Source: a virus. Taken from it: a stretch of 49,080 nt of DNA. This document shows, in pieces, positions 7,289-39,986 of this stretch; the stretch's first letter is position 1; every line of letters starts with the position of its first letter. Below the pieces are notes generated by a model. It did no database searches, was not told the origin of the DNA, and worked only from the letters and a program-made list of their open reading frames with translations. The stretch covers positions 1 to 49,080 of the IMG/VR virus record IMGVR_UViG_3300020219_000020, one strand, 5' to 3'. The position numbers and the translations under genes were made by a program.

Positions 7289-7491
7289 GTAAAGAAATGG
7301 GAGACACGTTTTTTCAAGGAATTAATGGTGGAGAAAAGCCAATTATAGGAGCAACATTGCCAAACGGGACTCGCGTAGTGGGAACGAATGCAGAGTGGTT
7401 ATTAAAACTTCTACCTAAACTGAGTTCGATACCACCAGAAGTGGAGGTGTTACAACCAACTAGCGCGCAGGTTATAAAGGATAGGGACTAA
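7285..7491 (+). CDS. Hypothetical protein, 68 aa
   Basis: The start overlaps the kinase stop (ATGA). The sequence reads MSKEMGDTFFQGINGGEKPI, then LPNGTRVVGTNAEWLLKLLP, and ends SAQVIKDRD. It is small and soluble with no known motif. Its position inside a tightly packed operon, with a stop one base before the next start, supports a real gene. Confidence 0.6.
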   Translation: MSKEMGDTFFQGINGGEKPIIGATLPNGTRVVGTNAEWLLKLLPKLSSIPPEVEVLQPTSAQVIKDRD

Positions 7492-7492
7492 T

Positions 7493-8065
7493 ATGCGAGA
7501 ACAAGATAATCACTATCATGCCCGTAGTCGGTACAAAGAAACTGAGCCAATAGACTATCTCAACTTGATACAAGATATTGCAGAGGTTCAAGAAAAAAAA
7601 GGAGCATCACTCAATGTTCATTTACCGCTCGAAATACAGCATCCCGACGTCTATTCTGATTTAGACCAAGGTGTGAATTTTATCTTATTTGCAGAAGTAG
7701 CAAAAAAAGCATTCAATGTTTTGTTGTATTGGGAAAATTCGCCGGAACAAGTGTACGACGGGGAAGATTGGGTATTGAAGCATGGTCAAACAAATTGGGA
7801 GAATATACCTGATACGATTGATCTGACTCTTGATACAGGCCACTTGATGCTTGGAGCAAGGGATATTGCAGAGGCTAGGGATCGCTTAGAAAATGTTCTG
7901 TTTATCTATGGCGAGCAAATCAAGCATGTTCATGTTCACGAAAATGATCTGGTCCACGACGATCACTTAGCTACTGGGACCGTTATAGATGAAGCGCTAT
8001 TAGAAAAACTTAAACAAGGTAGAACGTATATCTTTGAACGACCAGAAGTACCAAGTAAAACTTGA
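7493..8065 (+). CDS. Xylose isomerase-like TIM-barrel protein, short (190 aa)
   Basis: The sequence has the marks of the sugar isomerase/endonuclease IV TIM-barrel superfamily: LLYWENSP (Glu81, a usual metal ligand), LTLDTGH (Asp114, His117), KHVHVHEND (His147, His149) and DDHLATGTV (His158). At 190 residues it is much shorter than the usual 260-300 and lacks the first strands. It may be a truncated or minimal version. Family members isomerise or epimerise sugars, or cleave at abasic sites. The adjacent kinase and nearby glycosyltransferases favour sugar chemistry. Confidence 0.7.
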   Translation: MREQDNHYHARSRYKETEPIDYLNLIQDIAEVQEKKGASLNVHLPLEIQHPDVYSDLDQGVNFILFAEVAKKAFNVLLYWENSPEQVYDGEDWVLKHGQTNWENIPDTIDLTLDTGHLMLGARDIAEARDRLENVLFIYGEQIKHVHVHENDLVHDDHLATGTVIDEALLEKLKQGRTYIFERPEVPSKT

Positions 8066-10665: not shown

Positions 10666-10895
10666 ACTCGCTTGATCTAATGAACATTACAGTCATTGGT
10701 GTTGATGGGCGTGTACGAACGGTTCCTAGTCATCTAAAAAAACAATTACTAGCTCAGGGATTTCGGATCATTACCAATGCTAGAGAGGAATATTATGCGC
10801 AACACGACAAGACGCTAAAAGATGGTGGCTGGCAGCAAGAGAATATTATTGAAGATATAGATGCTGTGAATTTTCTGGAAGTTGAAAAGATATGA
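10647..10895 (+). CDS. Hypothetical protein, 82 aa
   Basis: It overlaps the preceding gene by 19 bases; ATG 10647 follows a GGGGGA site, and a second ATG lies at 10662. The sequence TVIGVDGRVRTVPSHLKKQL, then AQGFRIITNAREEYYAQ, is compact, and the C-terminus is acidic. No family is recognised. The stop overlaps the start of the glycosyltransferase gene that follows, suggesting coupling. Confidence 0.6.
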   Translation: MELYNMNSLDLMNITVIGVDGRVRTVPSHLKKQLLAQGFRIITNAREEYYAQHDKTLKDGGWQQENIIEDIDAVNFLEVEKI

Positions 10896-12007
10896 TATCT
10901 GTTAAATATTTTGCTCCCTGGAAAGATCACAGTGGTTACGGTAACGCTTCACGCGCTTTTATTACTGCCCTTTACTGTGCAGGGGTCAATACCACGACGG
11001 AACTAGTGGTACAGGTTCCTGAGAAATCACATTACGGATTGCCAGAACACATTGCCAGTTCGCTAGAGAATCGGGATATTGATTACAAAATAAAGATACT
11101 TCACTGTACGCCGGATATGATTCCTCGTTACATGGAGGCTGGAAAATATCATATTTCCCATTTGTTTACCGAAACAGACCGGCTTCCCGCCAGTTGGATT
11201 GCACCTCTGAATACAGTTGGGGAAATATGGACAGCGTCAGAAAGACAAGCGCAGATGTTTCGTGGTTCTGGTATAAAAGTGCCGATACACAGCTTTGCGC
11301 AGCCAATAAATATCATGGCAGGGGAGGAACGGATTGCTCCCCTTGAAATACGATATAAAAAGGATTTTACTTTTTACAGTATCTTTCAATGGATTGACCG
11401 GAAAAATCCGCGAGGACTACTAAGAGCGTACTGGCGGGAATTCGAGGGAAATAATAACGTAACTTTACTTCTTAAAACTTATCGGGTGAATTATAGTGAA
11501 AGGGAGTATGCTCTTATCAAAAGCGATATAGCTGCGTGGAGATTAGAATTGAATCAAGGCCATTATCCGAAAATATTGCTGGTAAATAAATTGCTACAGG
11601 AACGGGATATGCCTCGTATTCATGCCTATGCAGATTGTTATGTGAACGCTAGTAGTTCTGAGGGGTGGTCAAGACCGGTACATGAGGCAATAATTATGGG
11701 AAAGCCAGTTATTAGCGCCGATAATGGAGGGATAACTGACTACCTGACTGAGGATTCTTACTACCGCGTCAAGAGCTTTCCGGTTGTTGCTACTGAGGTA
11801 TCTCATATTCCTTGGTACACAAAAGACCAGAGTTGGTGGGATATTGATGAAGCAGATTTAGGCAATACAATGAAAACTGTGTTCTTAGAAACTAATCGTC
11901 ATGCAAGAGCTGGCAGAGCAAAGCAGTGGGCTATGGAACATACATCATATCAAGAAGTTGGACGACAGATGAAAGAACGGTTAGTGCAGATCAGTAGAAT
12001 CTTTTGA
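10892..12007 (+). CDS. GT-B glycosyltransferase, family 4-like (371 aa)
   Basis: The C-terminal domain carries the GT4 nucleotide-sugar site: YVNASSSEGWSRPVHEAII with the E-x7-E type acid pair (SSEGWSRPVHE), then GKPVISADNGG. The N-terminal domain has SGYGNASRAFITAL, the glycine-rich acceptor-side loop. The two Rossmann domains span about residues 1-165 and 170-371, the normal length. Such enzymes retain the sugar configuration and build polysaccharide, glycolipid or glycoprotein. This is the first of a run of glycan genes; the start overlaps the preceding stop (ATGA). Confidence 0.85.
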   Translation: MISVKYFAPWKDHSGYGNASRAFITALYCAGVNTTTELVVQVPEKSHYGLPEHIASSLENRDIDYKIKILHCTPDMIPRYMEAGKYHISHLFTETDRLPASWIAPLNTVGEIWTASERQAQMFRGSGIKVPIHSFAQPINIMAGEERIAPLEIRYKKDFTFYSIFQWIDRKNPRGLLRAYWREFEGNNNVTLLLKTYRVNYSEREYALIKSDIAAWRLELNQGHYPKILLVNKLLQERDMPRIHAYADCYVNASSSEGWSRPVHEAIIMGKPVISADNGGITDYLTEDSYYRVKSFPVVATEVSHIPWYTKDQSWWDIDEADLGNTMKTVFLETNRHARAGRAKQWAMEHTSYQEVGRQMKERLVQISRIF

Positions 12008-12009
12008 CC

Positions 12010-12261
12010 ATGAAATCACGGACTGGAAAAGATGAAAACTCACAGGAGAATTGCACTAGTTGTCTTATGAGCAAAACGAAGAAGGATATGCTGCGCATTG
12101 CTTCTGAGAGAAAAGATCGTTGGTACTGTATTTCTTGCCTACTGCGCTCATTACCGGCAATGATGGTAAGGAAAGGCAAGAGCGAAGATGATATGTCGTT
12201 ATTATTAGGAATAAGATATTTTCTGAAAAAGAAAGGACTTGTAAATGACAAAGTTAATTAA
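12010..12261 (+). CDS. Small zinc-ribbon protein (83 aa)
   Basis: ATG 12010 was taken; a TTG at 12004 overlapping the upstream stop is possible. NCTSCLMSK and WYCISCLLRSL give two CxxC pairs about 25 residues apart (a zinc ribbon). The C-terminus is basic with KKKGLVNDKVN. It interrupts the glycan cassette and overlaps the next gene by 17 bases. A regulatory or nucleic-acid-binding role is possible. Confidence 0.55.
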   Translation: MKSRTGKDENSQENCTSCLMSKTKKDMLRIASERKDRWYCISCLLRSLPAMMVRKGKSEDDMSLLLGIRYFLKKKGLVNDKVN

Positions 12262-12625
12262 ACAAGAACAGCCAACACAACAGTTAGCAACGCCAGAGCA
12301 AATACAGGCAATATCGACCATAAAAAATGCTGCTAATGCCACATACGCTGCGGCACAGGAGTTCACATTAGTTATTGAGCAGGTTCTTATGGATCAGTTT
12401 GGATTCACAGAGGAGGAAATTAAAAAACTTCATCGGGAAGTGGAGCGCATACTGACCGTTGTTAGGCAAGCAGAAGGAGCAGGGCTAAATAGTGTGGGAA
12501 TAAGGACTATTAAGATGCTGTCTGAGATAGCTGAAATTAGGCAAGAACGTGAACGTATTGAAGCAACAGGGATTAAATTGCCACCAGTAAACCAGAACGC
12601 TGTCATTATGAAATTATTAAAATAA
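12245..12625 (+). CDS. Helical hypothetical protein (126 aa), MTKLIKQEQ start
   Basis: The N-terminus MTKLIKQEQPTQQL resembles the MKKLTKQEQ starts at 3233 and 14872. The rest is helical: QAISTIKNAANATYAAAQEF, then DQFGFTEEEIKKLHREVERI and IRQERERIEATGIKLPP. There is no cysteine or membrane span. A small coiled-coil adaptor is plausible; no family is recognised. Confidence 0.6.
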   Translation: MTKLIKQEQPTQQLATPEQIQAISTIKNAANATYAAAQEFTLVIEQVLMDQFGFTEEEIKKLHREVERILTVVRQAEGAGLNSVGIRTIKMLSEIAEIRQERERIEATGIKLPPVNQNAVIMKLLK

Positions 12626-12663
12626 AGCGATGAGTTAATATTCGTAGAGTTGCTTACGACAAA

Positions 12664-12700
12664 AAGCGGGAAAGCCCACTTCTTTAGAGGCGGGATGAAA
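12664..12700 (+). mobile_element. Hairpin element resembling an IS200/IS605 right end (copy D)
   Basis: GCCCACTTCTTTAGAGGCGGG (hairpin at 12675-12694, loop TTTA, one mismatch) is flanked by AAGCGGGAAA and ATGAAAGC. From memory, this arrangement, a subterminal hairpin ending in GGGATGAA, is common at the right ends of TnpB-carrying IS200/IS605 elements. No transposase or tnpB is present. The following glycosyltransferase gene starts 20 bases after it. Confidence 0.5.
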
Positions 12701-12719
12701 GCACCAATCAATAGGTAAT

Positions 12720-13739
12720 ATGGCTAAAATACTATATTTAAGTGTACATTCTGTGCTAGAGAGGGATGAAGTATCCCTCTTCCAAGAGTTGGGTCATACT
12801 GTTTTCAGCTTGCATGGAGCCTATCAGTTTGGATCTGGGGACGGGAAACGTCCAGCCCTGCCAATGGAGGTCGAAGCACATCTTCATGACCTAGCTTTGC
12901 AATGTAGTAGAGACAATCTTTTGCCGGAACTTGTTGATTGGGCTGACATCATTATGTTCATGCACAAGACAGATTGGATTGAGAATAACTGGAGTAAAAT
13001 AAAAAACAAAAAGGTGATTTGGCGGTCTATTGGACAGAGTTCTCAACTAGACGAACAGGAATTATCTCGGTGGCGAGGTAAGGGACTCAAGATTGTTCGG
13101 TATTCCCCTCGCGAAGATACCATCCCTAGCTTTCAAGGAAGAGATGCTCTCATTCGTTTTTATAAAGATGAAGAAGAGTACGCAGGGTATATTGGCGCTA
13201 ATCCCCAGGTGATTAATGTGTCTCAGGCTATGTTCGGTAATGAAACCGTAGGTTCGCGGGGAGATCACATGAATGTGGATATATTAAAGAATGTCTTGGC
13301 GGGAATGCCTTGGAAGATATTTGGTCCTGATAACGACTTTGCCGCAGAGCATAATGGTGGGTCGCTCCCGTTTGATGATCTAAAAAACATGCTCCGGTTT
13401 AATCGAGTATTTTTCTATACCGGTACTGCTCCTGCTGCCTACACGCTTAGTTTTATCGAGGCAATGATGACTGGTATACCTATTGTAGCCATCGGCCCTA
13501 AGCTGGGCAACAGTGTTTACCCGCAACAACAGACCTATGAGGTCCATGAGATTATACAAAATGAGATAAGCGGGTATTGGTCCGATGAGGTTCCCAAGCT
13601 GCGGGAGTATATCCAATTGCTTCTTGACGATCATGAGAGAGCTAAAGTAATCGGCTCCAGAGGGAGAGCGCGGGCAATCGAATTCTTTGGGAAAGGCAAG
13701 ATACGCCAAGAATGGAAGGTCTTTTTAGAAAATTTGTGA
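12720..13739 (+). CDS. Glycosyltransferase-like protein, GT-B fold (339 aa)
   Basis: The N-terminus MAKILYLSVHSVLERDEVSL is a Rossmann strand-turn. The C-terminal half includes FYTGTAPAAYTLSFIEAMMT followed by GIPIVAIGPKLGN, the pattern of the GT-B donor site (E-A-M-x-x-G-x-P). The last part (HERAKVIGSRGRARAIEFFG) is the typical C-terminal helix. Sugar and acceptor are unknown. It overlaps the methyltransferase gene that follows by 28 bases. An IS-end-like hairpin lies just upstream. Confidence 0.75.
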   Translation: MAKILYLSVHSVLERDEVSLFQELGHTVFSLHGAYQFGSGDGKRPALPMEVEAHLHDLALQCSRDNLLPELVDWADIIMFMHKTDWIENNWSKIKNKKVIWRSIGQSSQLDEQELSRWRGKGLKIVRYSPREDTIPSFQGRDALIRFYKDEEEYAGYIGANPQVINVSQAMFGNETVGSRGDHMNVDILKNVLAGMPWKIFGPDNDFAAEHNGGSLPFDDLKNMLRFNRVFFYTGTAPAAYTLSFIEAMMTGIPIVAIGPKLGNSVYPQQQTYEVHEIIQNEISGYWSDEVPKLREYIQLLLDDHERAKVIGSRGRARAIEFFGKGKIRQEWKVFLENL

Positions 13740-14419
13740 ACTACCACCACAATATGCCAATAGTAACTGATTATTTAGCAAAAAAATCTAGTGGCCTTGT
13801 TTCTACTATGCCGGAGGTGCGGGATGAGGGGCGTGGATACATGATGTATGATTCGGGAGGAGTTGAGGCTGAGGTGGGGGAGCTTATCTATGGATTTATA
13901 AGAGCTTTGAAACCGAAATCTATACTAACTACTGGAATTTACACAGGAATATCAGATATGTATATCGCACTCGGATTATCAGAAAACCGATACGGACACA
14001 TTGACGCTATTGAATATGAATATCAGCACATTGAGCGAGCAAAGCGGCTATGGCAGACGGTAGGAGTTAGTGATCGTATCTCTGCGCACCATACATCTTC
14101 TTTGGATTTTCAACCAACCAAACAGTATCAATTCATGTTTCTTGATACGGAATTGCATCTCCGGTTCCATGAGCTTGTAAAATTTTATCCGTACCTAGAC
14201 CCCGGCGGCTATGTGTTTATCCACGATATGCCGGTATCTCTTTGTCAAAATAATGTCAATCCCGATCATCCTGATTTTAAGCATTGGCCGGTAGGGGAAA
14301 TCCCTGTTGAGGTAAAGAATTGGGTGAAAGACGGGGAACTGCGTCCAATGTTTTTTCCTAATCCAAGAGGAATGTTGGGGTTTTATCGTTCTCGAAGCGA
14401 CGAATATAAATGGCTATGA
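13712..14419 (+). CDS. Class I SAM-dependent methyltransferase (235 aa)
   Basis: The Rossmann core is visible: KSILTTGIYTGISDMYIALG (motif I, residues about 69-88), HIDAIEYEYQHIERAKRLW (motif II with the acidic ribose-binding residue), then FMFLDTELHLRF (motif IV) and YLDPGGYVFIHDMP (motif V). It resembles sugar or O-methyltransferases of the TylF/MacC or family 24 type. Within this cassette it likely methylates a sugar or glycan end. The start may instead be ATG 13754 (MPIVTDYL), which would remove the long overlap with the previous gene. Confidence 0.8.
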   Translation: MEGLFRKFVNYHHNMPIVTDYLAKKSSGLVSTMPEVRDEGRGYMMYDSGGVEAEVGELIYGFIRALKPKSILTTGIYTGISDMYIALGLSENRYGHIDAIEYEYQHIERAKRLWQTVGVSDRISAHHTSSLDFQPTKQYQFMFLDTELHLRFHELVKFYPYLDPGGYVFIHDMPVSLCQNNVNPDHPDFKHWPVGEIPVEVKNWVKDGELRPMFFPNPRGMLGFYRSRSDEYKWL

Positions 14420-14514
14420 AAAATATATTGCGTTTAGGGTTGGTTCAACCCTTTGGCCAGAATAGCTCATTGGAGCGTTTTATTACCCAAGAAGCCCACG
14501 GATTTATTCGTGGG
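14418..14514 (+). mobile_element. Structured IS200/IS605-end-like element (copy A)
   Basis: About 97 bases match the reverse complement of 22792-22899. They hold three hairpins: AGGGTTG-gtt-CAACCCT, GCTC-attg-GAGC and CCCACGGA-TTTA-TTCGTGGG (14495-14514). The element begins at the end of the methyltransferase gene and stops where a DnaB-like frame resumes. No transposase is nearby. It may be the scar of a transposition-linked deletion. Confidence 0.7.
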
Positions 14515-14875
14515 TAGATTCACCGTTGTCGATTTTGTCCAAAACATCATGGTCACAGGCATGGAAGAGTATCAAAGATTGTCTCATGTAGCTTTGTCTC
14601 TGCAAAAGCTGGCCAAGGAAAAGAACTGTTGCATATTGCTTCTCTCTCAGCTGTCAAACACCGCAGCACGGGATAAGGACGATAGCGCACCGGTGGAGTA
14701 TAAGGGGTCCGGATCAATTGCGACGGTGTGCGATCTTGGGTTTGTGGTGACGCGCACGACCGGTTGGGACGCAGGAGAGAACGCAGTCCGTTTGTTTTTA
14801 CGAAAGAACCGCCGAGGGCCATCAGGTAAGTATTTCGATCACACGTTTGTCATACCGGGAGGGTGGATAAAGTGA
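14515..14875 (+). pseudogene. C-terminal fragment of DnaB-type replicative helicase
   Basis: The frame resumes right after a hairpin element with RFTVVDFVQNI (motif H3-like, usual IDYLQ), then LSLQKLAKEKNCCILLLSQL (the ALAKE..VPVI.LSQL block) and EYKGSGSIATVCDLGFVVTR (the RESGSIEQDAD block), ending in FLRKNRRGPSGKYF. These are the last ~120 residues of a RecA-fold helicase of about 450. The ATP-binding motifs are absent from the window, so the gene looks truncated. A TTG within the element could start a fusion product, but that is unlikely to work. Confidence 0.75.
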
Positions 14876-15018
14876 AAAAACTAACTAAAAAAGAACAAAT
14901 AGCCGAGGCAATGAAAGTCTACCGAGCAAAGTATGGGGAAATAGCACACCAAGCACGCCAGATAAATGAAGCCTACCTAGCAAGGCTCAAGGAGATAGAG
15001 AAACAAGAGGAAAAATAA
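14872..15018 (+). CDS. Small charged protein (48 aa), MKKLTKKEQ start
   Basis: A GTG start overlaps the helicase fragment's stop. The protein reads MKKLTKKEQIAEAMKVYRAK and EIAHQARQINEAYLARLKEI, an amphipathic helix with no cysteine. The first 30 bases are nearly the same as those of the tiny ORF at 3233. It looks like a member of a start-cassette family with a different body. Confidence 0.55.
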   Translation: MKKLTKKEQIAEAMKVYRAKYGEIAHQARQINEAYLARLKEIEKQEEK

Positions 15019-15019
15019 T

Positions 15020-15244
15020 ATGAATAAAATAACAGCTTATTTAAGATTTGCAGGTTTTGAGCGAAAAATGAAAATAGAAAGGTTACCTGAAATTAGGATA
15101 CCGATAACATTACCTTTAACTATTAGTTATTTACAAGAAGCTTTTCTTCCCAGCAGCCCAAACAAACATCCAGTATTAGTCTTTGAATGGAAAAGGCAAT
15201 TAACTAAGTATACACACGAATATTCTTTGAAAGAAATAATATGA
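15020..15244 (+). CDS. Hypothetical protein, 74 aa
   Basis: ATG 15020 follows AAGAGGAAAAATAAT. The sequence has LRFAGFERKMKIERLPEIRI, then LPLTISYLQEAFLPSSPNK and FEWKRQLTKYTHEYS, mostly strand-like. It is translationally coupled (TATGA) to the next membrane protein. No family is recognised. Confidence 0.55.
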   Translation: MNKITAYLRFAGFERKMKIERLPEIRIPITLPLTISYLQEAFLPSSPNKHPVLVFEWKRQLTKYTHEYSLKEII

Positions 15245-15390
15245 GAAAACTAAGATTTATAAATATAATTATATCAATTATTGTGTTTCCACTTGGATCA
15301 TATTTGATCTACAGTTTTGGTAATTGGCAGTTATTGCTTGGAATATTTTTGCTTATGTGGGGAAACAACATTGCTCAAGATAAAACCTAA
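15241..15390 (+). CDS. Small two-span membrane protein (49 aa)
   Basis: The start overlaps the preceding stop. Two hydrophobic stretches, IIISIIVFPLGSYLIYSF (about residues 9-26) and WQLLLGIFLLMWG (about 29-41), are joined by a short turn, with a basic N-terminus. This is the pattern of a small hairpin membrane protein. A boundary motif overlaps the stop codon. The function is unknown. Confidence 0.55.
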   Translation: MRKLRFINIIISIIVFPLGSYLIYSFGNWQLLLGIFLLMWGNNIAQDKT

Positions 15391-15406
15391 CTAAACCTTT
15401 ACTTAT
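15388..15406 (+). repeat. TAACTAAACCTTTACTTAT boundary motif, copy 5
   Basis: This is the longest copy. It overlaps the stop of the small membrane protein and lies 30 bases before the start of the next glycosyltransferase. It includes stop codons in more than one frame. Confidence 0.7.
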
Positions 15407-15435
15407 AAATAAATAGACGAATTGGCTACAATCTT

Positions 15436-16329
15436 ATGAATACCCGCGCAATTCTTACTTGTTGGCATCGCTACCAGCCCTATGGAGCGAAATATTACGA
15501 ACCTTTGCTGGATTTCTATATCCAAACGATGAAGAGATATGAAAACGAGTACGATAAGATTTATTTTCTGGATAGTAATTGGGAAATAGACCCTAAGAAA
15601 ATAGAGGGATTAAAGGCTGAGATCGTGCGCATTGGTCCACATGAGAGGTATTATGACGCATACAAGAAATTTCTTCCGGAGGTAAAAGAGGATCTGGTGC
15701 TTCTGATGGACAACGATATGCTGGTGTACCGGACAGGCATCATTGGCTCGGCATTTCTAAAGATGAATGAAGGGTATGGTGCTGCGAGCATTTTCGATAC
15801 TATTGGTGATTGGACGTTCTCTCAGTTCAATGGAAAATCTAAAGTGTGTCCATATTTCTTCTGTACTCGCAAGGAACTTCTAATGAAGTACCGGGACTGC
15901 GAGTGGGGTCCTGCAATGCCTCAGCACGAAACGCTAGGGATGTTGTCAAAGGGCATGGCTGATGATGGAGTAAAGGTGTTTGAGTTTGAGGAGGATAAGT
16001 CTAACTGTCTTTTTGATGGAACCAAAGATGGGGAGAAAAGCAAGAATCTAGGCTACTATCACATAAGAGCGGGGAGTGTTCCCGCTGTTTTATTAGCTTA
16101 TAAAGACAACGATGAGGATCAGTATTGGTCTTACCTAAACACACAGCCAAAGACGGAGTATTTACGACAGTTTGTATGGTATTGGTATATGTGTAGGCGA
16201 ATAGCACCATTAGATAGTCCCATGCACATTAAAGCAATAGAAGATATTTTGAGAGATTGCGGGATCAAGCGTAGCTCGCAGTGGAGAGAGTATGTTGAGA
16301 GATTTATTGAATATCACGGACTATTGTGA
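15436..16329 (+). CDS. GT-A glycosyltransferase-like protein (297 aa)
   Basis: The sequence DLVLLMDNDMLVYRTGIIGS has the DxD-type metal/nucleotide-sugar site (DND at residues 92-94). It is followed by SIFDTIGDWTFSQFNG and FFCTRKELLMKYRDC, as in the acceptor half of GT-A folds. The start ILTCWHRYQPYGAKYYEPLL resembles proteins that open the GT-A Rossmann part. The length is normal. The sugar is unknown. It overlaps the metallophosphoesterase gene by four bases. Confidence 0.75.
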   Translation: MNTRAILTCWHRYQPYGAKYYEPLLDFYIQTMKRYENEYDKIYFLDSNWEIDPKKIEGLKAEIVRIGPHERYYDAYKKFLPEVKEDLVLLMDNDMLVYRTGIIGSAFLKMNEGYGAASIFDTIGDWTFSQFNGKSKVCPYFFCTRKELLMKYRDCEWGPAMPQHETLGMLSKGMADDGVKVFEFEEDKSNCLFDGTKDGEKSKNLGYYHIRAGSVPAVLLAYKDNDEDQYWSYLNTQPKTEYLRQFVWYWYMCRRIAPLDSPMHIKAIEDILRDCGIKRSSQWREYVERFIEYHGLL

Positions 16330-16955
16330 AAATAATTTCTGTATCTGATAGCCACGGTAAACATGAGAGGCTCACAATTCCTCCTTGCGATTTGTTCATT
16401 CATGCTGGGGATTTTACTCATTGTGAACCAGCACAAGTTAGCGACATTCTTCATTTCAATGCTTGGTTGGGAAAGATACCTGCGAGACAGAAAATAGTTA
16501 TCGCTGGAAACCATGACCGCTTATTTGAAGGCATGTATGCTCGTTACGCCCAATCAATAATAACTAATGCTATATATCTAAGAGATAGTGGAACTATCAT
16601 CAGTGATGAAAAAGGGAAAGACTGGTCAGTGTGGGGTTCTCCGTATACGCCATATTATCGAAACTGGTCATTTAATGTGCAGGGTGAAGGAATTAAACGT
16701 CATTGGGATATGATTCCTGAAAATACAGATATCCTTGTTACTCATGGACCTCCTAGAGGCATACTGGACAAGGCAAGAGGAGAACATCTTGGATGCCCGT
16801 ATCTGTGGGATAGAGTTGTGCAGTTGAAACCTAAACTGCATGTCTTTGGACACATCCACTCAGGGTACGGGAAAGCGGAAAATAGATTTATCAATGCAGC
16901 GGTTTGTGACGATACGAACCAATTGATACATCCACCAATTGCACATTGTACATAA
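16326..16955 (+). CDS. Calcineurin-like metallophosphoesterase (209 aa)
   Basis: All family motifs are present in order: DSH (Asp8, His10), GDFTH (28-32), GNHD (61-64), TH (His140) and GHIH (175-178). These ligands bind two metals for phosphoester hydrolysis. The GTG start overlaps the glycosyltransferase stop. Phage versions can act on nucleic acid or nucleotides. In this position it may remove phosphate from a sugar intermediate or polymer. It is complete, with no missing ligand. Confidence 0.85.
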   Translation: MKIISVSDSHGKHERLTIPPCDLFIHAGDFTHCEPAQVSDILHFNAWLGKIPARQKIVIAGNHDRLFEGMYARYAQSIITNAIYLRDSGTIISDEKGKDWSVWGSPYTPYYRNWSFNVQGEGIKRHWDMIPENTDILVTHGPPRGILDKARGEHLGCPYLWDRVVQLKPKLHVFGHIHSGYGKAENRFINAAVCDDTNQLIHPPIAHCT

Positions 16956-16962
16956 GTAGGAT

Positions 16963-17160
16963 ATGGAAAAAACAATAGGTTCATTGATTGACGAAATTTC
17001 AATCGTTAATATTAAGATTTATCACCTTGTCGAGAAAGTGCAGTCTGGTAATTTTGAGAAAGAAGATGCGAGCAAGATACAATTGCTCAATAATTACCGG
17101 AGCCAGATCACTAATGCTATTAATGAATTCTTCAAGGAACGAAAAGAAGTAAAAGTATGA
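16963..17160 (+). CDS. Small helical protein (65 aa), DUF4254-like
   Basis: The sequence TIGSLIDEISIVNIKIYHLV, then SKIQLLNNYRSQITNAINEF, is all-helical. It follows the pattern G-x-L-I-D-x-L-S-x-x-N-x-K and L-N-x-x-R-x-x-L that I associate with DUF4254-like small proteins encoded in glycan and phage gene clusters; this match is tentative. It overlaps the epimerase start (ATGA), which supports a role in the same pathway. Confidence 0.5.
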   Translation: MEKTIGSLIDEISIVNIKIYHLVEKVQSGNFEKEDASKIQLLNNYRSQITNAINEFFKERKEVKV

Positions 17161-18014
17161 ATATTCTAATCAGCGGGGCAGCAGGATTTGTCGGCAGTCA
17201 CCTGTGCGACTACCTCATTGAAAACGGTCATACCATCATTGGGATAGATAATCTTTCCACAGGAGATATGAAAAATGTTCATCCTAAAGTAGATTTTCAT
17301 TATCTTGATATATTCCATGAACCAAAGCGGATAAGTTTATTGCTTAAAGATTACAAGCCTGACTGGGTGTTTCATGAGGCTGCGCAGTGTCGCACACAAC
17401 TTTCTGTTGATGACCCATTGCAAAACCACGATACGAATATAACAGGAACGCTTAATATGCTCCTTGCAGCATGTGCCGCAGAGGTAAAGCGCTTTATCTT
17501 TGCCTCTTCCTGTATTGTTTATGCCCCCAATACTCCCTACTATGTCAGCAAGCTGGCTGGAGAAGAGTATTGTAAAGTATTCCATAAACTTTACGGGTTA
17601 TCTACAATTTCTCTGAGGTATTCCAACGTCTATGGATCGCTTCGTCAGTCAGAGAAAGGCAGTCATGTCAATGCGATTGCATCATTACACAAGTCAAAGA
17701 GGGAAACAGGGCGCTTGTGGATAACTGGTGACGGACTCCAAACAAGAGACTGGTCGCATGTAACGGATGTTTGTCGGGCAAACCTTCTTGCTGCACAATC
17801 TGATATAAACGGTGTCTTTGATATTTCTACGGGCGTTAGCACTTCTATGAATGAGATTGCTAAATACTTTGACTGTCCTATCGACTATGTGCCAGATAGG
17901 CTGGGCGATGCGAAACATCTAAGTGAACAGCAAACCCCAATACCAGCAGAGTTAGCTTTTGGGTATAAAGCAGAGATACTTCTTGGGCTGGAGTCAATGA
18001 AGCCGTACCTATGA
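17157..18014 (+). CDS. NAD-dependent sugar epimerase/dehydratase (285 aa)
   Basis: This is an extended SDR fold. GAAGFVGS (7-14) is the NAD-binding GxxGxxG loop, DNLS (31-34) binds the adenosine ribose, ASS (116-118) and YYVSK (Y128-K132) are the catalytic residues. RYSNVYG (about 154-160) and WSHVTDVCRANLLA follow as in GalE/RmlB-type enzymes. It is about 30 residues shorter than typical. The likely reaction is 4-epimerisation or dehydration of a nucleotide sugar, supplying a donor for the flanking glycosyltransferases. Confidence 0.85.
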   Translation: MNILISGAAGFVGSHLCDYLIENGHTIIGIDNLSTGDMKNVHPKVDFHYLDIFHEPKRISLLLKDYKPDWVFHEAAQCRTQLSVDDPLQNHDTNITGTLNMLLAACAAEVKRFIFASSCIVYAPNTPYYVSKLAGEEYCKVFHKLYGLSTISLRYSNVYGSLRQSEKGSHVNAIASLHKSKRETGRLWITGDGLQTRDWSHVTDVCRANLLAAQSDINGVFDISTGVSTSMNEIAKYFDCPIDYVPDRLGDAKHLSEQQTPIPAELAFGYKAEILLGLESMKPYL

Positions 18015-18991
18015 GACAAGCATTTATTTCTAGTTGTTCTGATCCATTTCTTTTGCTACTTGTTCACAAACTCTTTCGAGAGCGTTGGTATGAAGAAGTA
18101 GATTCATTCCTGGTAAACATAAATAACCACTGTGGAGTGCCGCAAGATGTAGTGTCTGAATTATTGGGACGATTAGCACAAGACAAGAAGACGGAGATTA
18201 TCTATCATCCTCAAGGGATTGGAAATGGCGCTCCAATCACTGAAATGACTCTCATTTCAAAGGCAGATACCGTGATGCTCATGGAGGATGACGGATTTTG
18301 CTTTACTCCCGGCGTTATAGATCAAGCATTTCAGCAAATAGAAAGCGGTTTTTCCGATGTTGTTGGATCGCCTCGGTTCTCCTGCGGTGTCGAAGTGGGG
18401 GAAGCAGCAAAGGAAAAATACAATCTGGATTATTCAGGCTACGGGGATGTGGGACCCAATCTGTGGCCGAATATGATGTTTATCAAAAGAAAAGATCTAC
18501 TGAGAACTGATTTAGATTTCTCTAGTCACACTTGGCAACCAGGGGAATACTCAAAAGAACTCGACCATACCTTCAAAGACATAAATCACGGCGATACAGC
18601 GGTATGGATGTGCGTACAACTCAAAGAATTAGGGCTGAGGTTTCACAATATTGCGCAGTACCATGCCGATCCCTACGAGATAGACAATAAAACAAAGAAG
18701 CAAATGAATTGGATTAACGGTCCTCCGACTCATATTCACGGTGGCTCTCTCTCGGCAGGCTGGAATGGTTATTTATCTGGCAGAATACCAGAGGCAACGG
18801 ATGATTCCTCTATTCAGGAGATGGAAACTAGAGTAGCGTTTTGGACGATAGCCAGCGCGTGTACTGATGGTTTTGAAGAGTTCAAGAAAGAATATCAACG
18901 GGGAATAGTGCAGCTAACTCATGATGCCAAATTAGATACGAGAAGAATAGAGAAAAAGATGAATATTTATCGGGATTTATTTCGCATATGA
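18011..18991 (+). CDS. GT-A-like glycosyltransferase (326 aa)
   Basis: The site VMLMEDDGFCFTPGV (EDD at residues 92-94) has the acidic cluster of GT-A enzymes. It is preceded by ITEMTLISKADTV, as in family 2-like enzymes, where a helix leads into the DxD strand. Downstream are NMMFIKRKDLL and DTAVWMCVQLKELGL, then THIHGGSLSAGWNGYL. The family is divergent, so the assignment rests on layout. It overlaps the epimerase stop and is probably made together with it. Confidence 0.65.
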   Translation: MRQAFISSCSDPFLLLLVHKLFRERWYEEVDSFLVNINNHCGVPQDVVSELLGRLAQDKKTEIIYHPQGIGNGAPITEMTLISKADTVMLMEDDGFCFTPGVIDQAFQQIESGFSDVVGSPRFSCGVEVGEAAKEKYNLDYSGYGDVGPNLWPNMMFIKRKDLLRTDLDFSSHTWQPGEYSKELDHTFKDINHGDTAVWMCVQLKELGLRFHNIAQYHADPYEIDNKTKKQMNWINGPPTHIHGGSLSAGWNGYLSGRIPEATDDSSIQEMETRVAFWTIASACTDGFEEFKKEYQRGIVQLTHDAKLDTRRIEKKMNIYRDLFRI

Positions 18992-19012
18992 TTGTAAAAA
19001 AGAGGAGAATGA

Positions 19013-19804
19013 ATGAACAAACCTGACCTACTCATTACATGGCACGAATCTGCTGACTACCCCATTGCTAGGGAAATGCTACGTAGACACCGTGACTTTT
19101 TTGGAAAAATAATTATCTATTGGAGTCAACATTTCCGCTATCCTATCTTTAGTCATTTTATCCAAACTCAACTTCACGATCTTGGAAACATCACCTTCCT
19201 TGATCCGGTTAACTACGAGTTTGGGATACAGGACTGGAGGAATGTTGCGACTAATGAAATGCTCAGGTATAGCAATAGCGAATGGATTTGTAGTATCGAG
19301 CAAGACTGGTTTAGCACTGACTGGAATCGACTGCTAGACATGACAAAAACCGCTATGGAAAAATCTGACATGTGTGGTTGGATGAGTGAAACAGCAGCGC
19401 CATATATTCATCCAGCATTCTTTTTTGCTAAACGAGAAATCATTGAACGCGCAGGATATGATTTTACCCCACATCCAGAGATTAATGGTAGCGATCACTT
19501 TGCTGCGATCACCTGGCGGGCGAAGGAGTTAGGAGCAGTAGTAACCGGACTTCCAGTTGGAGAAGTGACCGATCAATCCCTAGCATTTCATTTGGGTGGT
19601 GTAAATCAAAATTATCTTGAAGGATTGAAACCTGGATATGCATTTCATAGGCCGGAGATATTTTATGTCTATAATTATTGGAGTCGGAGAGCGAAAATAA
19701 ATAAAAAGTTCCGAGACTTGTGCCTTGATATCGACTCAATATTGCGCCCGCAATTCCCGAGTGTTTATCCGCACACAAGTCCTTGGGCTGATTTTTTTAG
19801 ATAA
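19013..19804 (+). CDS. GT-A-like glycosyltransferase, paralogue A (263 aa)
   Basis: It has WICSIEQDWF (EQD at residues 96-98) where the DxD motif is expected, then HPAFFFAKREIIERAGYDF and LAFHLGGVNQNYLEG, followed by HRPEIFYVYNYWSRR. These features recur in order in the next gene (FLEQDF, HLGGLTQNYH, PNEFYTYNYLS), so the two are tandem paralogues. AGAGGAGAATG precedes the start. Donor and acceptor are unknown. Confidence 0.65.
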   Translation: MNKPDLLITWHESADYPIAREMLRRHRDFFGKIIIYWSQHFRYPIFSHFIQTQLHDLGNITFLDPVNYEFGIQDWRNVATNEMLRYSNSEWICSIEQDWFSTDWNRLLDMTKTAMEKSDMCGWMSETAAPYIHPAFFFAKREIIERAGYDFTPHPEINGSDHFAAITWRAKELGAVVTGLPVGEVTDQSLAFHLGGVNQNYLEGLKPGYAFHRPEIFYVYNYWSRRAKINKKFRDLCLDIDSILRPQFPSVYPHTSPWADFFR

Positions 19805-19808
19805 AACT

Positions 19809-20561
19809 ATGACCACTGCTGTATTCGTTGTGCAACCAGTTCACATTGATTATCCCCTGTTTCGTCATCGCCTCACTCAGCTTCACCGATTGGTAAAGGA
19901 TATCTACATCGTTTTTTCTGACGCACAATTCCTTCATAATTACCAGAAATTTATTGTCAATAGTTTGCCGTTTGTTCACTTTGTATCCCCAATGAAAACA
20001 GAACCCGATTGGCGCGATGATGCTATCCGCTCCATTTTAACTAGAAGTATTGAAGCAGATCGGATTCTCTTTTTAGAACAAGACTTTCTTTTTACCGATC
20101 AGTTCATGCCCTGCATTTTATCTGCTGAATTTAATGACTATGATTTTATCTTTTATAAAGAGGGTGATCGGTATCATCCAGCGTTTTGCTTAGTAAGATA
20201 TGATCTTATCGTTAGGACCGATTGCAACTTCGCTGCCAAGCCACCGGCCTACGATCATTTTGGTTCGTTTTTTAAGCAAGTCCTTAATCTTTCTAAATAC
20301 TCTCTTGATATCGAACAGGTAGGATTTAAGAAACAACAGGATTTCTGTCATCTCGGCGGATTGACCCAAAACTATCACTGCTTAGACAACAACCAACCAC
20401 TCTATAAACCGAATGAATTCTATACTTACAACTATCTCTCTATAAATGTTCCTGTCATACAGGATAAGCACTGGTATGATCGTATGGGTCGGATAAATAC
20501 CGATGTTTCTGAAAAAGAGTTTGTTCCTTGGATGAAACAAATTTTTGCTGATACGCTATGA
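19809..20561 (+). CDS. GT-A-like glycosyltransferase, paralogue B (250 aa)
   Basis: The start was set at ATG 19809 (MTTAVFVVQPVHIDYPLF); the open frame extends 28 codons further into the preceding gene, but without a site. It shares with its upstream neighbour the EQD site (residues 90-92), HPAFCLVRYDLI, HLGGLTQNYH and the FYTYNYLS block. The pair suggests duplication with divergence, perhaps for different linkages. The stop overlaps the next start (ATGA). Confidence 0.65.
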   Translation: MTTAVFVVQPVHIDYPLFRHRLTQLHRLVKDIYIVFSDAQFLHNYQKFIVNSLPFVHFVSPMKTEPDWRDDAIRSILTRSIEADRILFLEQDFLFTDQFMPCILSAEFNDYDFIFYKEGDRYHPAFCLVRYDLIVRTDCNFAAKPPAYDHFGSFFKQVLNLSKYSLDIEQVGFKKQQDFCHLGGLTQNYHCLDNNQPLYKPNEFYTYNYLSINVPVIQDKHWYDRMGRINTDVSEKEFVPWMKQIFADTL

Positions 20562-20725
20562 AAAAGTTGTTCTCATCTCTACCTGTTAAAAAGAGAATAC
20601 GATTATCGCGCAAAGAAATGAAGCGGGAGTTTCACTATCTCATTGATGAAAAAGGATACAGTCATCTATCGTGCTTATTGTGCAATAAGGTGGATCACGA
20701 TTGTCCTGCTCATCTAAAAATATGA
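20558..20725 (+). CDS. Small basic zinc-binding protein (55 aa)
   Basis: The protein is basic at its N-terminus (MKKLFSSLPVKKRIRLSRKE) and ends with SHLSCLLCNKVDHDCPAH, a Cys-x2-Cys and His-x-Cys set able to hold one zinc. It overlaps both neighbours by ATGA, so it is tightly embedded in the glycan operon. The role is unknown. Confidence 0.55.
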   Translation: MKKLFSSLPVKKRIRLSRKEMKREFHYLIDEKGYSHLSCLLCNKVDHDCPAHLKI

Positions 20726-21774
20726 ATATTCTAATTGATAATCATCACTTAGATTTGACCCACTCACTGAATCTTCTTTTTGAAGGGCGGCTAGGTCACA
20801 CGGTGTATCGTCAGATCGGGATGTCGTGGGCAGATGAGGGGTATTGGTCAGTATACAACCATCCAGATACCGCGAAACAATATCTTATGGATGGGTTTAT
20901 CCCTAAGGACGGGACACCGCCACTCAATGGTGTAAGCCGGATTAAGAACGGCGTCCACGTCATCAGAGATGAAGCACATTATAGCGAACAGAAAGCCATA
21001 ACGCTAGAGCAATTTAAGGAGATGAAGTTTGATATCGTTATTGCTAGCATTCCCCAACACATAGAACCGTTTAAGAAGCTGATCCGGTTATACCAGCCGC
21101 AAGCAAAATTTATCTTCCAGCAAGGCAATCATTTCTTGCAAACAGATCATTATATAAAAAACGGGATGATCGAAAATCTTCTGTCATCCACTGTAGAATA
21201 CCCTGTTCCTGCTACTTTGAATGTCTGTTGGTATCATCAAGAGATGTCTCTTGACGTTTTCAAGCCATCGGAATTTTCTCCAAGAAAGAACATAACGAGC
21301 TTTGTTAATCTTCTTCCAACAACGGCAAAGGCATATCTCTACTACATGCTGAAACAAGAAATGCAGGAGTATGAATTTAAGAGCTACGGTATTTTATGCG
21401 ATGACGGGATCATCTCAGGAGTAGATAAGATTGCTAGAATCATAAATCAAAGTATGTTTGGTATTCATGTTAAGTCAGGTGGTGATGGCGCGGGGCATGT
21501 AATTCATAATTTCTATGCTTGCGGTAAACCAACTATAGTGAGTTACGATGACTATAAAGACAAACAAGCAGGTAAATTACTTGTTCCTGATGAGACTTGT
21601 TTTGTTCTCGACAGCATTAAAGATGTCCAAAGAGTCGCAGAGGAAATAAGGAAAATATCTCCTGAAAAATATGAGTGGATGTGCCAACAAGCGTACAAGA
21701 AGTTCAAAGAGGTGGTAAACTACGATGAAGAATCGGAAAAGATTCAGGAATTTTTACTTCATGTTTTATTATGA
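20722..21774 (+). CDS. GT-B glycosyltransferase-like protein (350 aa)
   Basis: The start was placed at ATG 20722, which overlaps the upstream stop. The N-terminal domain starts MNILIDNHHLDLTHSLNLLF. The C-terminal domain has MFGIHVKSGGDGAGHVIHNF followed by ACGKPTIVSYDDYKD and AGKLLVPDETC, the GT-B donor pattern. IASIPQHIEPFKKLIRLY lies at the domain border. It is divergent but the length and layout fit. It is the last clear glycan gene of the cassette. Confidence 0.65.
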   Translation: MNILIDNHHLDLTHSLNLLFEGRLGHTVYRQIGMSWADEGYWSVYNHPDTAKQYLMDGFIPKDGTPPLNGVSRIKNGVHVIRDEAHYSEQKAITLEQFKEMKFDIVIASIPQHIEPFKKLIRLYQPQAKFIFQQGNHFLQTDHYIKNGMIENLLSSTVEYPVPATLNVCWYHQEMSLDVFKPSEFSPRKNITSFVNLLPTTAKAYLYYMLKQEMQEYEFKSYGILCDDGIISGVDKIARIINQSMFGIHVKSGGDGAGHVIHNFYACGKPTIVSYDDYKDKQAGKLLVPDETCFVLDSIKDVQRVAEEIRKISPEKYEWMCQQAYKKFKEVVNYDEESEKIQEFLLHVLL

Positions 21775-22208
21775 CAATGCAATGCCCTATTCATGGCGAT
21801 TTTCCAACAGAGGAGGCGTATTTACTTCATATAAAAATGGACCATAGTGGTGCTTCTCCTGAAATGGATTTAATAAAAATAAAAGCAAATGGCCTCCCGC
21901 CTGGAATACCTGAATCAGCAATTCCGACTCCTGATTTTATCGTTCAAGTACAAAGGATCGAAGCGCAGAAACAAGCTGCAATGCAGAAGGTGGCTCCTCC
22001 TCTGCTACCTCTGCTTGCGCCAGAGCCTCTGGTACAAGCAGTACTCAAGGAGCTTCACCTAGAGTACTGCTATACCGGCAACTGCCCCACCTGTTCTGGC
22101 GTCAATATCAGTACACTGATGATTGAGGTGGAAAAGAATATGATTGCTGTTGCTCTATGTGAATCGTGTCGAAAAAGTGTTAAGCAAATAAAAGTGAAAC
22201 CGTTATAA
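21771..22208 (+). CDS. Zinc-finger protein (145 aa)
   Basis: The N-terminus has a single C2H2-like finger: MQCPIHGDFPTEEAYLLHIK, with MDHSG completing it (residues about 4-27). A Pro-rich middle (APPLLPLLAPEPL) links to a C-terminal zinc ribbon with GNCPTCSGV and ALCESCRKS. Two zinc modules around a linker suggest nucleic acid or protein binding. It overlaps the preceding gene by ATGA. Confidence 0.65.
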   Translation: MTMQCPIHGDFPTEEAYLLHIKMDHSGASPEMDLIKIKANGLPPGIPESAIPTPDFIVQVQRIEAQKQAAMQKVAPPLLPLLAPEPLVQAVLKELHLEYCYTGNCPTCSGVNISTLMIEVEKNMIAVALCESCRKSVKQIKVKPL

Positions 22209-38329: not shown

Positions 38330-38968
38330 TTATTCACCCCCTTCTACAATAATGTTTTGTTTTGTAATCGGCTCTTTGTCTTCGATTTGATGAAGACCAT
38401 TGTTAATTTCTCTTTTCCCTAATTCTCTCAGTCGTAAATGACGACATTCTCCGGGAAGAACCGCAATGGTATATCCTTTATCTCTTGCCATACAGAAAAA
38501 GTAAATATCTTGGCCCCCATATACCTTGTCGGGATTCGTTGATTGCCAGGACCAGTCATTGAGCCGCAACGCAATATCGGTCCTGAAATACGGTTTCTCA
38601 AGAGCAAGAAATACCTCTCTCTTTATCAACGTGCATCCTAGACCACACCAGAGAACTTCCTGTGTCTTTTTCTCTGTACAAACACAGCCGTATCCTGCTA
38701 CCGAATAGTCAATGCAGACGATTGGCTGATCCTCTCTCATCATCTGCGCTAAGGCGAGCTCAGGCATGACCACATCTTCCTCAACAAACAGCAGGTAACT
38801 CGGTTCCCAAGCGAGGGCTTGGTCAACCAGTATATTTTGACACTCCGGTATTGGTAAGGTGCTGGACCGAAAAATTCGGTACCGATATCCCCACAGATTT
38901 TTTTCCAATGCACTTTGAGCGTCAGAAAAGATCATGCCTCTCGTGCATTGGATTACTGCAATATCCAT
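38330..38968 (-). CDS. GT-A-like glycosyltransferase inside the structural operon (212 aa)
   Basis: The site YLLFVEEDVVMPELALAQMM (EED at 63-65) is the DxD-type metal site. It is followed by GYGCVCTEKKTQEVLWCGLG and CTLIKREVFLALEKPYF, then YGGQDIYFFCMARDKGY, the acceptor-side Asp-containing segment of GT-A enzymes. It is shorter than most. Located between the capsid gene and a small virion gene, it may glycosylate a virion part, or be a cassette gene displaced into the late arm. Confidence 0.75.
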   Translation of the reverse strand: MDIAVIQCTRGMIFSDAQSALEKNLWGYRYRIFRSSTLPIPECQNILVDQALAWEPSYLLFVEEDVVMPELALAQMMREDQPIVCIDYSVAGYGCVCTEKKTQEVLWCGLGCTLIKREVFLALEKPYFRTDIALRLNDWSWQSTNPDKVYGGQDIYFFCMARDKGYTIAVLPGECRHLRLRELGKREINNGLHQIEDKEPITKQNIIVEGGE

Positions 38969-39050: not shown

Positions 39051-39911
39051 TTATGAACGCATCTCTACACCCCCTGTGGTGCGAAGTGCGGTTACTCCGT
39101 AAATAACGTCAACGACAACTCTCCATGCTAAAGAAGGAAGCCAGTAGGCTGCCTGTAGGCGAGGAGCTTGTTGCAAAGCTAGTGCAAACGCTTCCTTGTG
39201 AATCAACAAATTGTGGTATTGGGTCGGTGTACCCGCATTTGCCGGAACATTGTTGGTGTAATACACTGGAACGCCGTAAATCTGCCCCCACATATATCGA
39301 CTATTTGGTCCACGCTTGACTGGAGTTGGCTGATTGTATTCTCCCAAGTAATCGGCTTTCACGAACTTATCTATCCTCATGATTGCGGCCATCTGTGATG
39401 GATGAATAATCATCGCCCGGTTTTCCAGCGGCATGTCATTGAGATTCAGCGTCAAGATTGCCGAAACGATGGTTGAATCAGAAATATCTGTACCGTAGGT
39501 TCCCACATCAGTTGTTGTCAGACCGGTGTACAGTCCCAAGACATCGGTATCTACTTGTTTTGCGATAGCATACCCTGCTTTTTGAGAATATTCAGAACGT
39601 AGATCGTAGTTACTTTGTACGGCTGCCATGTCTTCGATCCCGAAGCTAGACTCGTACCATTTGTTGATAGTGAGAGTCGTTGATGTTTCCGTAATTGCCT
39701 GGGTCGTAACATCAGTGTTTGCCGCCTTTGCTGTAACCGTTAAATTGGAAATATTAGGGATCTGAATCGCCTGTCCTCTCGATTTTACGAGAGAGTCGTA
39801 TCGTTTCACGAGTCCTGCTGCAACTAATGCGTTTTCTGTAGCCCTTAGTGTTTCTATTGACCAAATTGTTGGTAGAAATACTGCGGCTGTAGTGGTTGTA
39901 ATAAGTGCCAA
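39051..39911 (-). CDS. Major capsid protein, HK97-fold type (286 aa)
   Basis: The start is probably TTG 39911, set by GGGAGGGGGTGA seven bases before it; the frame opens 12 codons earlier. The N-terminus then reads MALITTTTAAVFLPTIWSIE, as in many capsid proteins. It has the usual order: N-terminal arm, long helix with TLRATENALVAAGLVKR, central domain with KWYESSFGIEDMAAVQSNYD, then DTDVLGLYTGLTTTDVGT and a C-terminal strand part (GVPVYYTNNVPANAGTP). The scaffold gene lies directly upstream. The high-affinity ribosome site fits heavy expression. Confidence 0.85.
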   Translation of the reverse strand: MALITTTTAAVFLPTIWSIETLRATENALVAAGLVKRYDSLVKSRGQAIQIPNISNLTVTAKAANTDVTTQAITETSTTLTINKWYESSFGIEDMAAVQSNYDLRSEYSQKAGYAIAKQVDTDVLGLYTGLTTTDVGTYGTDISDSTIVSAILTLNLNDMPLENRAMIIHPSQMAAIMRIDKFVKADYLGEYNQPTPVKRGPNSRYMWGQIYGVPVYYTNNVPANAGTPTQYHNLLIHKEAFALALQQAPRLQAAYWLPSLAWRVVVDVIYGVTALRTTGGVEMRS

Positions 39912-39986
39912 AAAAATCACCCCCTCCCAAAAGTTAACACTGTTCAATAAAAAGCAGTAAACAATAGGAAAAGGTGATTTTTTGCC

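What the first reader, a model, noticed from the sequence alone, without database searches (positions are those of the whole stretch)
10892..21774. Unusually large glycan-synthesis cassette in a phage
Over 11 kb, about a fifth of the genome, encodes two clear GT-B and four or more GT-A-like enzymes, a nucleotide-sugar epimerase, a methyltransferase, a metallophosphoesterase and small helper proteins, most with overlapping starts and stops. With the separate kinase/isomerase pair at 6.5-8 kb it could make a complete sugar chain. It may rebuild the host surface to block other phages, coat the virion, or modify DNA.
Basis: partly seen in the sequence, partly recalled or inferred. Interest (0 to 1): 0.65.

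Follow-up and report, generated by a model that had tools for sequence, protein, structure and literature searches.

The report
Phage sugar-coating gene cassette
This uncultivated phage carries at least seven sugar-transferring enzymes in one block, plus an eighth beside its capsid gene; the same block sits directly behind the capsid gene in many related phages, which suggests that these phages build sugar chains onto their own shell, as some algal and archaeal viruses do.

Summary
Window 10892-21774 (22% of a 49 kb phage record) encodes three GT-B and four GT-A glycosyltransferases, a nucleotide-sugar epimerase/dehydratase-type enzyme, an O-methyltransferase and a metallophosphoesterase. The cassette is not a chimera: the core order GTB1-GTB2-MT-GTA-GTB3 recurs in dozens of IMG/VR phage contigs (a GTB3 profile hits 136). 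No relative of the other core GTs tested was found in 50,697 cultured-phage records; GTB1 has only distant hits. In one lineage (19 of 21 usable loci) MCP is followed by a GT-B and then the whole cassette. In another, MCP is followed by the GT-A (29 of 34 loci). That GT-A is homologous to STIV A197, the proposed capsid glycosyltransferase of an archaeal virus; GTB1's best PDB match is chlorovirus B736L, listed among capsid-glycan enzymes. The cassette enzymes have no transmembrane or export proteins, and no thymidylate-synthase-type base hydroxymethylase was found. Best explanation: cytoplasmic glycosylation of the phage's own virion, most likely the MCP. DNA glycosylation and host-surface rebuilding are less supported. 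The kinase/isomerase pair is not part of the conserved module. No glycan has been seen; the acceptor is inferred.

The parts
10892..12007 (+). GTB1: GT-B glycosyltransferase, GT4-like; homologue of chlorovirus B736L
   Evidence: Pfam PF00534/PF13692 E 3.5e-7; PHROG 2170 glycosyltransferase; profile A14 vs PDB best hit 3oy2 B736L E 1.5e-13; in nearly all relatives
12720..13739 (+). GTB2: GT-B glycosyltransferase
   Evidence: Pfam PF00534 weak E 0.0017, below cut-off; profile A15 vs PDB: TarM E 3.8e-10; in all 14 relatives first fetched
13712..14419 (+). MT: O-methyltransferase (Methyltransf_24), probably sugar O-methylation
   Evidence: Pfam PF13578 E 4.7e-8; conserved position after GTB2
15436..16329 (+). 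GTA1: GT-A-like glycosyltransferase (DND motif)
   Evidence: hhalign to GTA2 family prob 99.3 E 1.5e-20; in the close relatives
16326..16955 (+). calcineurin-like metallophosphoesterase, lineage-specific accessory
   Evidence: Pfam PF00149 E 6.9e-13; no match in the 14 relatives by phmmer
16963..17160 (+). small protein with DUF4254 C-terminal match, accessory
   Evidence: Pfam PF14063 E 3.4e-6, bits 27.4 vs cut-off 27
17157..18014 (+). NAD-dependent nucleotide-sugar epimerase/dehydratase (extended SDR); relatives carry a different, only distantly similar SDR near this place
   Evidence: Pfam Epimerase E 2e-51; NCBIfam below all equivalog cut-offs, so substrate unknown; only 46-60 bits to relatives' SDRs
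18011..18991 (+). GTA2: GT-A glycosyltransferase (EDD motif), part of the conserved core
   Evidence: AF2 pLDDT 95.1; VIA top Z 14.3, GT-A enzymes; 19 viral contigs
19013..19804 (+). GTA3: GT-A-like glycosyltransferase (EQD motif)
   Evidence: hhalign of GTA3/4 family to GTA2 prob 97.9 E 6e-13; conserved in relatives
19809..20561 (+). GTA4: paralogue of GTA3 (EQD motif); listed ORF starts at 19725 but orthologues start near 19809
20722..21774 (+). GTB3: putative GT-B glycosyltransferase, most widespread cassette marker
   Evidence: profile vs PDB GT-B Alr3699 E 0.011, weak; 136 viral contigs
21771..22208 (+). Zn-finger/ribbon-like protein after the cassette, found near it in some close relatives
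   Evidence: weak, 19-40 bits; no Pfam match
38330..38968 (-). GTAcap: GT-A glycosyltransferase next to MCP, homologue of STIV A197; candidate initiating enzyme
   Evidence: AF2 pLDDT 95.8; Foldseek best PDB hit 2c0n E 2.8e-9; VIA Z 17.5, 160 aligned, 26% id; sequence profile vs 2c0n E 8.7e-5; 29 of 34 loci directly or nearly behind MCP
39051..39947 (-). major capsid protein, proposed acceptor
   Evidence: PHROG 267 E 1.2e-44, Pfam PF25209 E 3.4e-13

Best explanation
The cassette is a virion-glycosylation system. Soluble phage enzymes in the host cytoplasm build a short, probably methylated, oligosaccharide on the phage's own virion, most likely on the major capsid protein. A GT next to the MCP gene (GTAcap here, a GT-B in the sister lineage) attaches the first sugar or sugars; GTB1, GTB2, the GT-A enzymes and GTB3 extend the chain; the O-methyltransferase and lineage-specific enzymes decorate it. 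Donors come mainly from the host, tailored by the epimerase. Shown: folds or families of the GTs, conservation and order of the cassette, its linkage to the MCP, homology to A197 and B736L. Inferred: acceptor, order of reactions, sugar identity and benefit (masking or stabilising the capsid).
For: Fixed order MCP-GTBcap-GTB1-GTB2-MT-GTA2-GTA3-GTB3 on one strand in about 20 contigs; 19 of 21 GTBcap genes with upstream sequence have MCP as next or next-but-one ORF. In loci holding both, MCP and a cassette GT lie within 2 genes in 21 of 23, against 20% for random genes (loci partly redundant). GTAcap follows MCP in 29 of 34 loci, and long contigs of that lineage also carry the cassette: G000, G001, G005, G006, G007, G015, G018 and L156. 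GTAcap best match in all PDB by fold and by sequence profile is STIV A197; the STIV MCP is glycosylated and A197 is essential and its proposed glycosyltransferase (PMC10551542). GTB1 best PDB match is chlorovirus B736L, whose family is listed among enzymes for chlorovirus MCP glycans, a cytoplasmic system with mostly soluble GTs (PMC5408694). No transmembrane segments in cassette enzymes.
Against: In the window itself the cassette lies on the early strand after replication/recombination genes, not in the late operon; in a third lineage (L134, L142, L144) it sits between DNA polymerase and a RecA-like gene. GTAcap relatives also occur without a recognised MCP neighbour (5 of 34) and, outside this group, in cultured myophages. 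G016/G017 carry GTAcap relatives without GTA2. STIV A197's acceptor is itself unproven, and B736L's activity was unknown in the review read. No glycoprotein has been observed.
Confidence: 0.6

Rival explanations
1. DNA glycosylation: the GTs add sugars to modified bases of phage DNA to block restriction enzymes.
For: Cassette lies among DNA-metabolism genes in the window (RusA, ParB-like) and in the L144 lineage (DnaB, primase, DNA polymerase, RecA-like, DNA methyltransferase). Many phage GTs act on DNA (stated in PMC12619734).
Against: No thymidylate-synthase-type base hydroxymethylase in any of 17 records, with the control ringing in 9 of 14 genomes. Tet/JBP not found either, but that control was silent. 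No match to phage DNA-glucosyltransferase families in the Pfam scans. MCP linkage and A197/B736L homology point to protein.
Confidence: 0.12
2. Host-surface remodelling: the cassette alters capsule or O-antigen to exclude other phages.
For: Similar GT families occur in chromosomal glycan clusters of Paenibacillus and Cohnella with a GDP-mannose dehydratase-like gene, a mannose-1-phosphate guanylyltransferase-like gene and sulfotransferase-like genes.
Against: No priming enzyme, flippase or polymerase seen and no transmembrane helices in cassette enzymes. No integrase noticed in the ORFs examined. Linkage is to capsid genes, and most relatives found are phage contigs.
Confidence: 0.1
3. The glycan is put on another virion part (tail, fibres) rather than the capsid; the MCP linkage only reflects the late operon.
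For: Mycobacteriophages glycosylate tail tube as well as capsid (PMC12363180; PMC12619734).
Against: The GT follows MCP specifically in two MCP lineages with two unrelated GT folds, while cassette position relative to tail genes varies.
Confidence: 0.13

Closest known systems
Chlorovirus (PBCV-1) MCP glycosylation by virus-encoded GTs (incl. A546L/B736L)
   Same: Several mostly soluble virus-encoded GTs plus a methyltransferase domain, cytoplasmic, making a decorated oligosaccharide on the MCP; GTB1 best PDB match is B736L (PMC5408694)
   Different: Algal large DNA virus with double-jelly-roll MCP and GT genes scattered in the genome; here tailed phages with a tailed-phage MCP and GTs in one ordered cassette
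STIV A197 (archaeal virus GT-A; STIV MCP B345 is glycosylated)
   Same: GTAcap shares fold, DXD-type motif and detectable sequence similarity
   Different: STIV has one such GT and a jelly-roll capsid; A197 donor and acceptor unproven (PMC10551542)
Mycobacteriophage virion glycosylation (Che8 gp110, Corndog gp38, Myrna; Freeman 2023, read only through citing papers)
   Same: Tailed phages that glycosylate capsid and tail tube with their own GTs (PMC12363180)
   Different: Few GTs, actinobacterial hosts; homology to this cassette was not tested directly
gtr serotype-conversion clusters and O-antigen loci
   Same: Phage-encoded sugar transfer
   Different: Membrane-bound, lipid-linked and exported; no such proteins seen here

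Membership tests
Virus-encoded virion (capsid) glycosylation system | Virus encodes several genuine glycosyltransferases | tested here: met
Virus-encoded virion (capsid) glycosylation system | Enzymes soluble/cytoplasmic | tested here: met
   No TM-like segment in the window cassette; hydropathy only, family maxima 1.84 or lower
Virus-encoded virion (capsid) glycosylation system | GT genes linked to virion genes | tested here: met
   GTAcap behind MCP 29 of 34 loci; cassette behind MCP in sister lineage, 19 of 21; not in every lineage
Virus-encoded virion (capsid) glycosylation system | Glycan present on virion protein | not testable with these tools
   needs mass spectrometry of virions or co-expressed MCP
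STIV A197-like GT-A family (GTAcap) | Same fold as A197 with significant sequence similarity | tested here: met
   Z 17.5, 26% id over 160 residues; profile E 8.7e-5; single sequence E 0.0012
Chlorovirus B736L / GT4 family (GTB1) | Profile match to GT4 GT-B enzymes | tested here: met
   3oy2 E 1.5e-13 as best PDB hit; Pfam PF00534 above cut-off
Phage DNA hypermodification (hydroxymethyl base + GT) | TS-family base hydroxymethylase | tested here: not met
   0 of 17 records, control rings
Phage DNA hypermodification (hydroxymethyl base + GT) | TET/JBP hydroxylase | tested here: inconclusive
   0 of 17 but control silent
gtr serotype conversion / Wzx-Wzy polysaccharide locus | Membrane flippase and lipid-linked membrane GT | tested here: not met
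   no TM proteins in the window cassette; none of the conserved families has TM segments

The most novel reading that the evidence does not exclude
A widespread group of uncultivated tailed phages makes a complex oligosaccharide on its capsid with a conserved cassette of six to eight glycosyltransferases started by an MCP-coupled enzyme: a bacterial-virus counterpart of chlorovirus capsid glycosylation, and a function for PHROG 1574 (distant relatives in cultured myophages).
Probability: 0.5. Interest if true: 0.72.

Novelty: new variant of a known kind. Interest (0 to 1): 0.6.

Why it matters
Phage virion glycosylation is known from a few mycobacteriophages with few enzymes. Here a multi-enzyme cassette is conserved and often coupled to the capsid gene across many phages from metagenomes, yet its core GTs other than GTB1 were not detected in 50,697 cultured-phage records. 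If the capsid is sugar-coated, cryo-EM, adsorption and particle stability of these phages would need a new look, and virus lineages with unrelated capsids would share homologous capsid-glycosylation enzymes. It also gives a testable role to a phage family annotated 'unknown function' (PHROG 1574).

Tried and rejected
Nucleotide search of the cassette in INPHARED: nothing. tblastn of five cassette GTs and GTAcap in INPHARED: nothing; GTB1 gave only 21-26% hits in Streptomyces, Flavobacterium and Microcystis phages. GTA2 pattern scan of bacterial genomes: no relative, but those patterns were narrow, since a later scan with GTB3 brought in bacterial loci that carry GTA2 homologues. So 'virus-only' was rejected as a claim. 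Sequence profiles of GTA2 and GTA3/4 against PDB: nothing; the fold was needed. hhalign of GTB3 with GTB1/GTB2 and of GTAcap with GTA2: not significant, so GTB3 as GT-B rests on weak evidence. The kinase/TIM-barrel pair was considered as sugar activation and set aside because relatives lack it. Thymidylate synthase and TET searches for DNA modification: negative. Bacterial-contig chimera: rejected. Host identity unresolved: cassette-bearing contigs, two with a phage MCP, are binned in MAGs of Omnitrophota and Patescibacteria, which is only a hint. No tRNA and no Rfam hit.
Full report
WHAT IS THERE. The window is a complete IMG/VR virus record of 49,080 bases. Its two ends overlap in one repeat-rich gene, so it is near-complete and probably circularly permuted or circular. 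It has a tailed-phage gene set: terminase, portal, MCP, tail proteins. Between 10892 and 21774, 22% of the record, lie three GT-B-type and four GT-A-type glycosyltransferases, an O-methyltransferase, an extended-SDR nucleotide-sugar enzyme and a metallophosphoesterase, with small ORFs and a DnaB fragment in between. Eight of 16 junctions overlap; the rest have gaps up to 191 nt.

ARE THEY GLYCOSYLTRANSFERASES? GTB1 and GTB2 match GT-B enzymes by profile. GTA2 had no Pfam or PDB sequence match, but its model (pLDDT 95.1) is a GT-A fold: almost all of 998 PDB chains aligned at Z 8 or more, the best at Z 14.3, nearly all top rows GTs or related nucleotidyl enzymes. GTA1, GTA3 and GTA4 are linked to GTA2 by profile comparison (E 1.5e-20 and 6e-13), and 10 of 83 members of the pooled GT set hit Pfam Glycos_transf_2. 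GTB3 is the least certain: best PDB profile hit is a GT-B at E 0.011, and hhalign to GTB1/GTB2 is not significant.

IT IS A CONSERVED MODULE. Relatives of GTA2, GTA3 and GTB3 (136 contigs, 80 kept) were fetched. Annotating whole contigs shows the same core in the same order: GTB1-GTB2-MT-GTA2-GTA3/4-GTB3, with GTA1 and an SDR in closer relatives. Accessory genes differ between phages (acetyltransferase- and hexapeptide-type enzymes and a second methyltransferase in L003; the metallophosphoesterase in the window). The window's SDR is not an orthologue of the relatives' SDRs (46-60 bits). A constant backbone with changing decorations is the pattern expected of a surface-exposed glycan (inference). 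The kinase and TIM-barrel genes at 6.5-8 kb had no match in the relatives.

LINK TO THE CAPSID. In the sister lineage the order is MCP, then a 400-aa GT4-type GT-B (GTBcap; Pfam E 6.8e-16), then the full cassette, all on one strand; 19 of 21 GTBcap genes with upstream sequence have MCP as the next or next-but-one ORF. In the window's own lineage a small GT-A (GTAcap, 38330-38968) follows MCP with an 82-nt gap, and the same neighbourhood (at most two predicted ORFs between) holds in 29 of 34 loci. Contigs long enough to show both regions carry GTAcap and the cassette together; L156 holds cassette, terminase, portal, scaffold, MCP and GTAcap within about 18 kb. Among 23 GTB3-derived loci that contain MCP, a cassette GT lies within two genes in 21, against 20% for random genes. 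These loci are partly redundant, since one virus can be in several metagenomes, so the counts are not independent events.

WHAT GTAcap AND GTB1 RESEMBLE. The GTAcap model (pLDDT 95.8) has STIV A197 as its best match in the whole PDB by Foldseek (E 2.8e-9), by VIA-align (Z 17.5, 26% identity over 160 residues) and by sequence profile (E 8.7e-5). The next matches are lysyl hydroxylase LH3's GT domain (Z 15.5) and, lower, ColGalT1, both from protein-glycosylating enzymes. The STIV MCP is glycosylated and A197 is essential and proposed to do it, though its acceptor is not proven (PMC10551542; PMC4187194). GTB1's best PDB match is chlorovirus B736L (E 1.5e-13), a homologue of PBCV-1 A546L, which a review lists among the enzymes for the capsid glycans; most of those GTs are predicted soluble and are expressed early, and capsid glycosylation runs in the cytoplasm (PMC5408694). 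The early-strand position of the cassette in the window is therefore no argument against a capsid role.

MECHANISM. Most likely GTAcap (or GTBcap) puts the first sugar on MCP and the cassette lengthens and methylates it. No export or lipid-carrier machinery is present and the cassette enzymes have no TM segments, so the acceptor should be cytoplasmic: virion protein or phage DNA. No TS-type hydroxymethylase was found in 17 records; Tet/JBP was not found but its control was silent. In one lineage the cassette lies between the DNA polymerase and a RecA-like gene, so DNA is kept as a rival; in that lineage GTAcap sits just after terminase.

NOVELTY. Virion glycosylation by phage-encoded GTs is known (mycobacteriophages, PMC12363180). 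What appears new is the size, conservation and capsid linkage of this cassette in uncultivated phages. Paper searches found no description of it, but the library holds only open papers. Among cultured phages only distant GTB1 hits and distant GTAcap relatives in myophages such as Cr30 and phiM12, annotated hypothetical, were seen. Cellular relatives exist in Paenibacillus and Cohnella glycan clusters, so the families are not virus-only.

LIMITS. No glycan was observed. Hosts are unknown. Two structure predictions were allowed, so GTB3 was not modelled. Locus counts include near-duplicates.

Noticed in passing
1-740 and 48253-49080: Both contig ends encode the same protein with a run of variable 24-nt-phased repeats (S/C-V-x-x tetrapeptides); 85% identity over 707 columns with different repeat numbers, as if two population variants of one hypervariable gene closed the circle.
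   Followed up: partly
14453-14875: C-terminal DnaB fragment (Pfam E 1.2e-11) without Walker A inside the cassette; only one of 16 related records has any DnaB match.
   Followed up: partly
5652-8065: Unknown protein, APH-type kinase and AP-endonuclease-2/xylose-isomerase-like TIM barrel in a row; no match in related phages.
   Followed up: partly
L115, L116, L119: Paenibacillus and Cohnella chromosomes carry GTB3, GTB2, MT and GTA homologues in glycan clusters with GDP-mannose dehydratase-like, guanylyltransferase-like, APS-kinase-like and sulfotransferase-like genes.
   Followed up: partly
L113, L114, L120: Cassette-bearing phage-like contigs binned in MAGs of Omnitrophota, Patescibacteria and Gottesmanbacteria (MCP seen in L113 and L114): a weak hint at hosts.
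   Followed up: no
L004:13587-16193: 868-aa protein beside the cassette reads like a terminase large subunit with an intein-like insertion; HNH-like small ORFs also lie inside cassettes (e.g. L003:1160-1507).
   Followed up: no
L002, L069: Two short contigs from one other metagenome (3300007516) are identical in sequence to the window's TerL and GTAcap, so the same phage occurs in a second data set.
   Followed up: no
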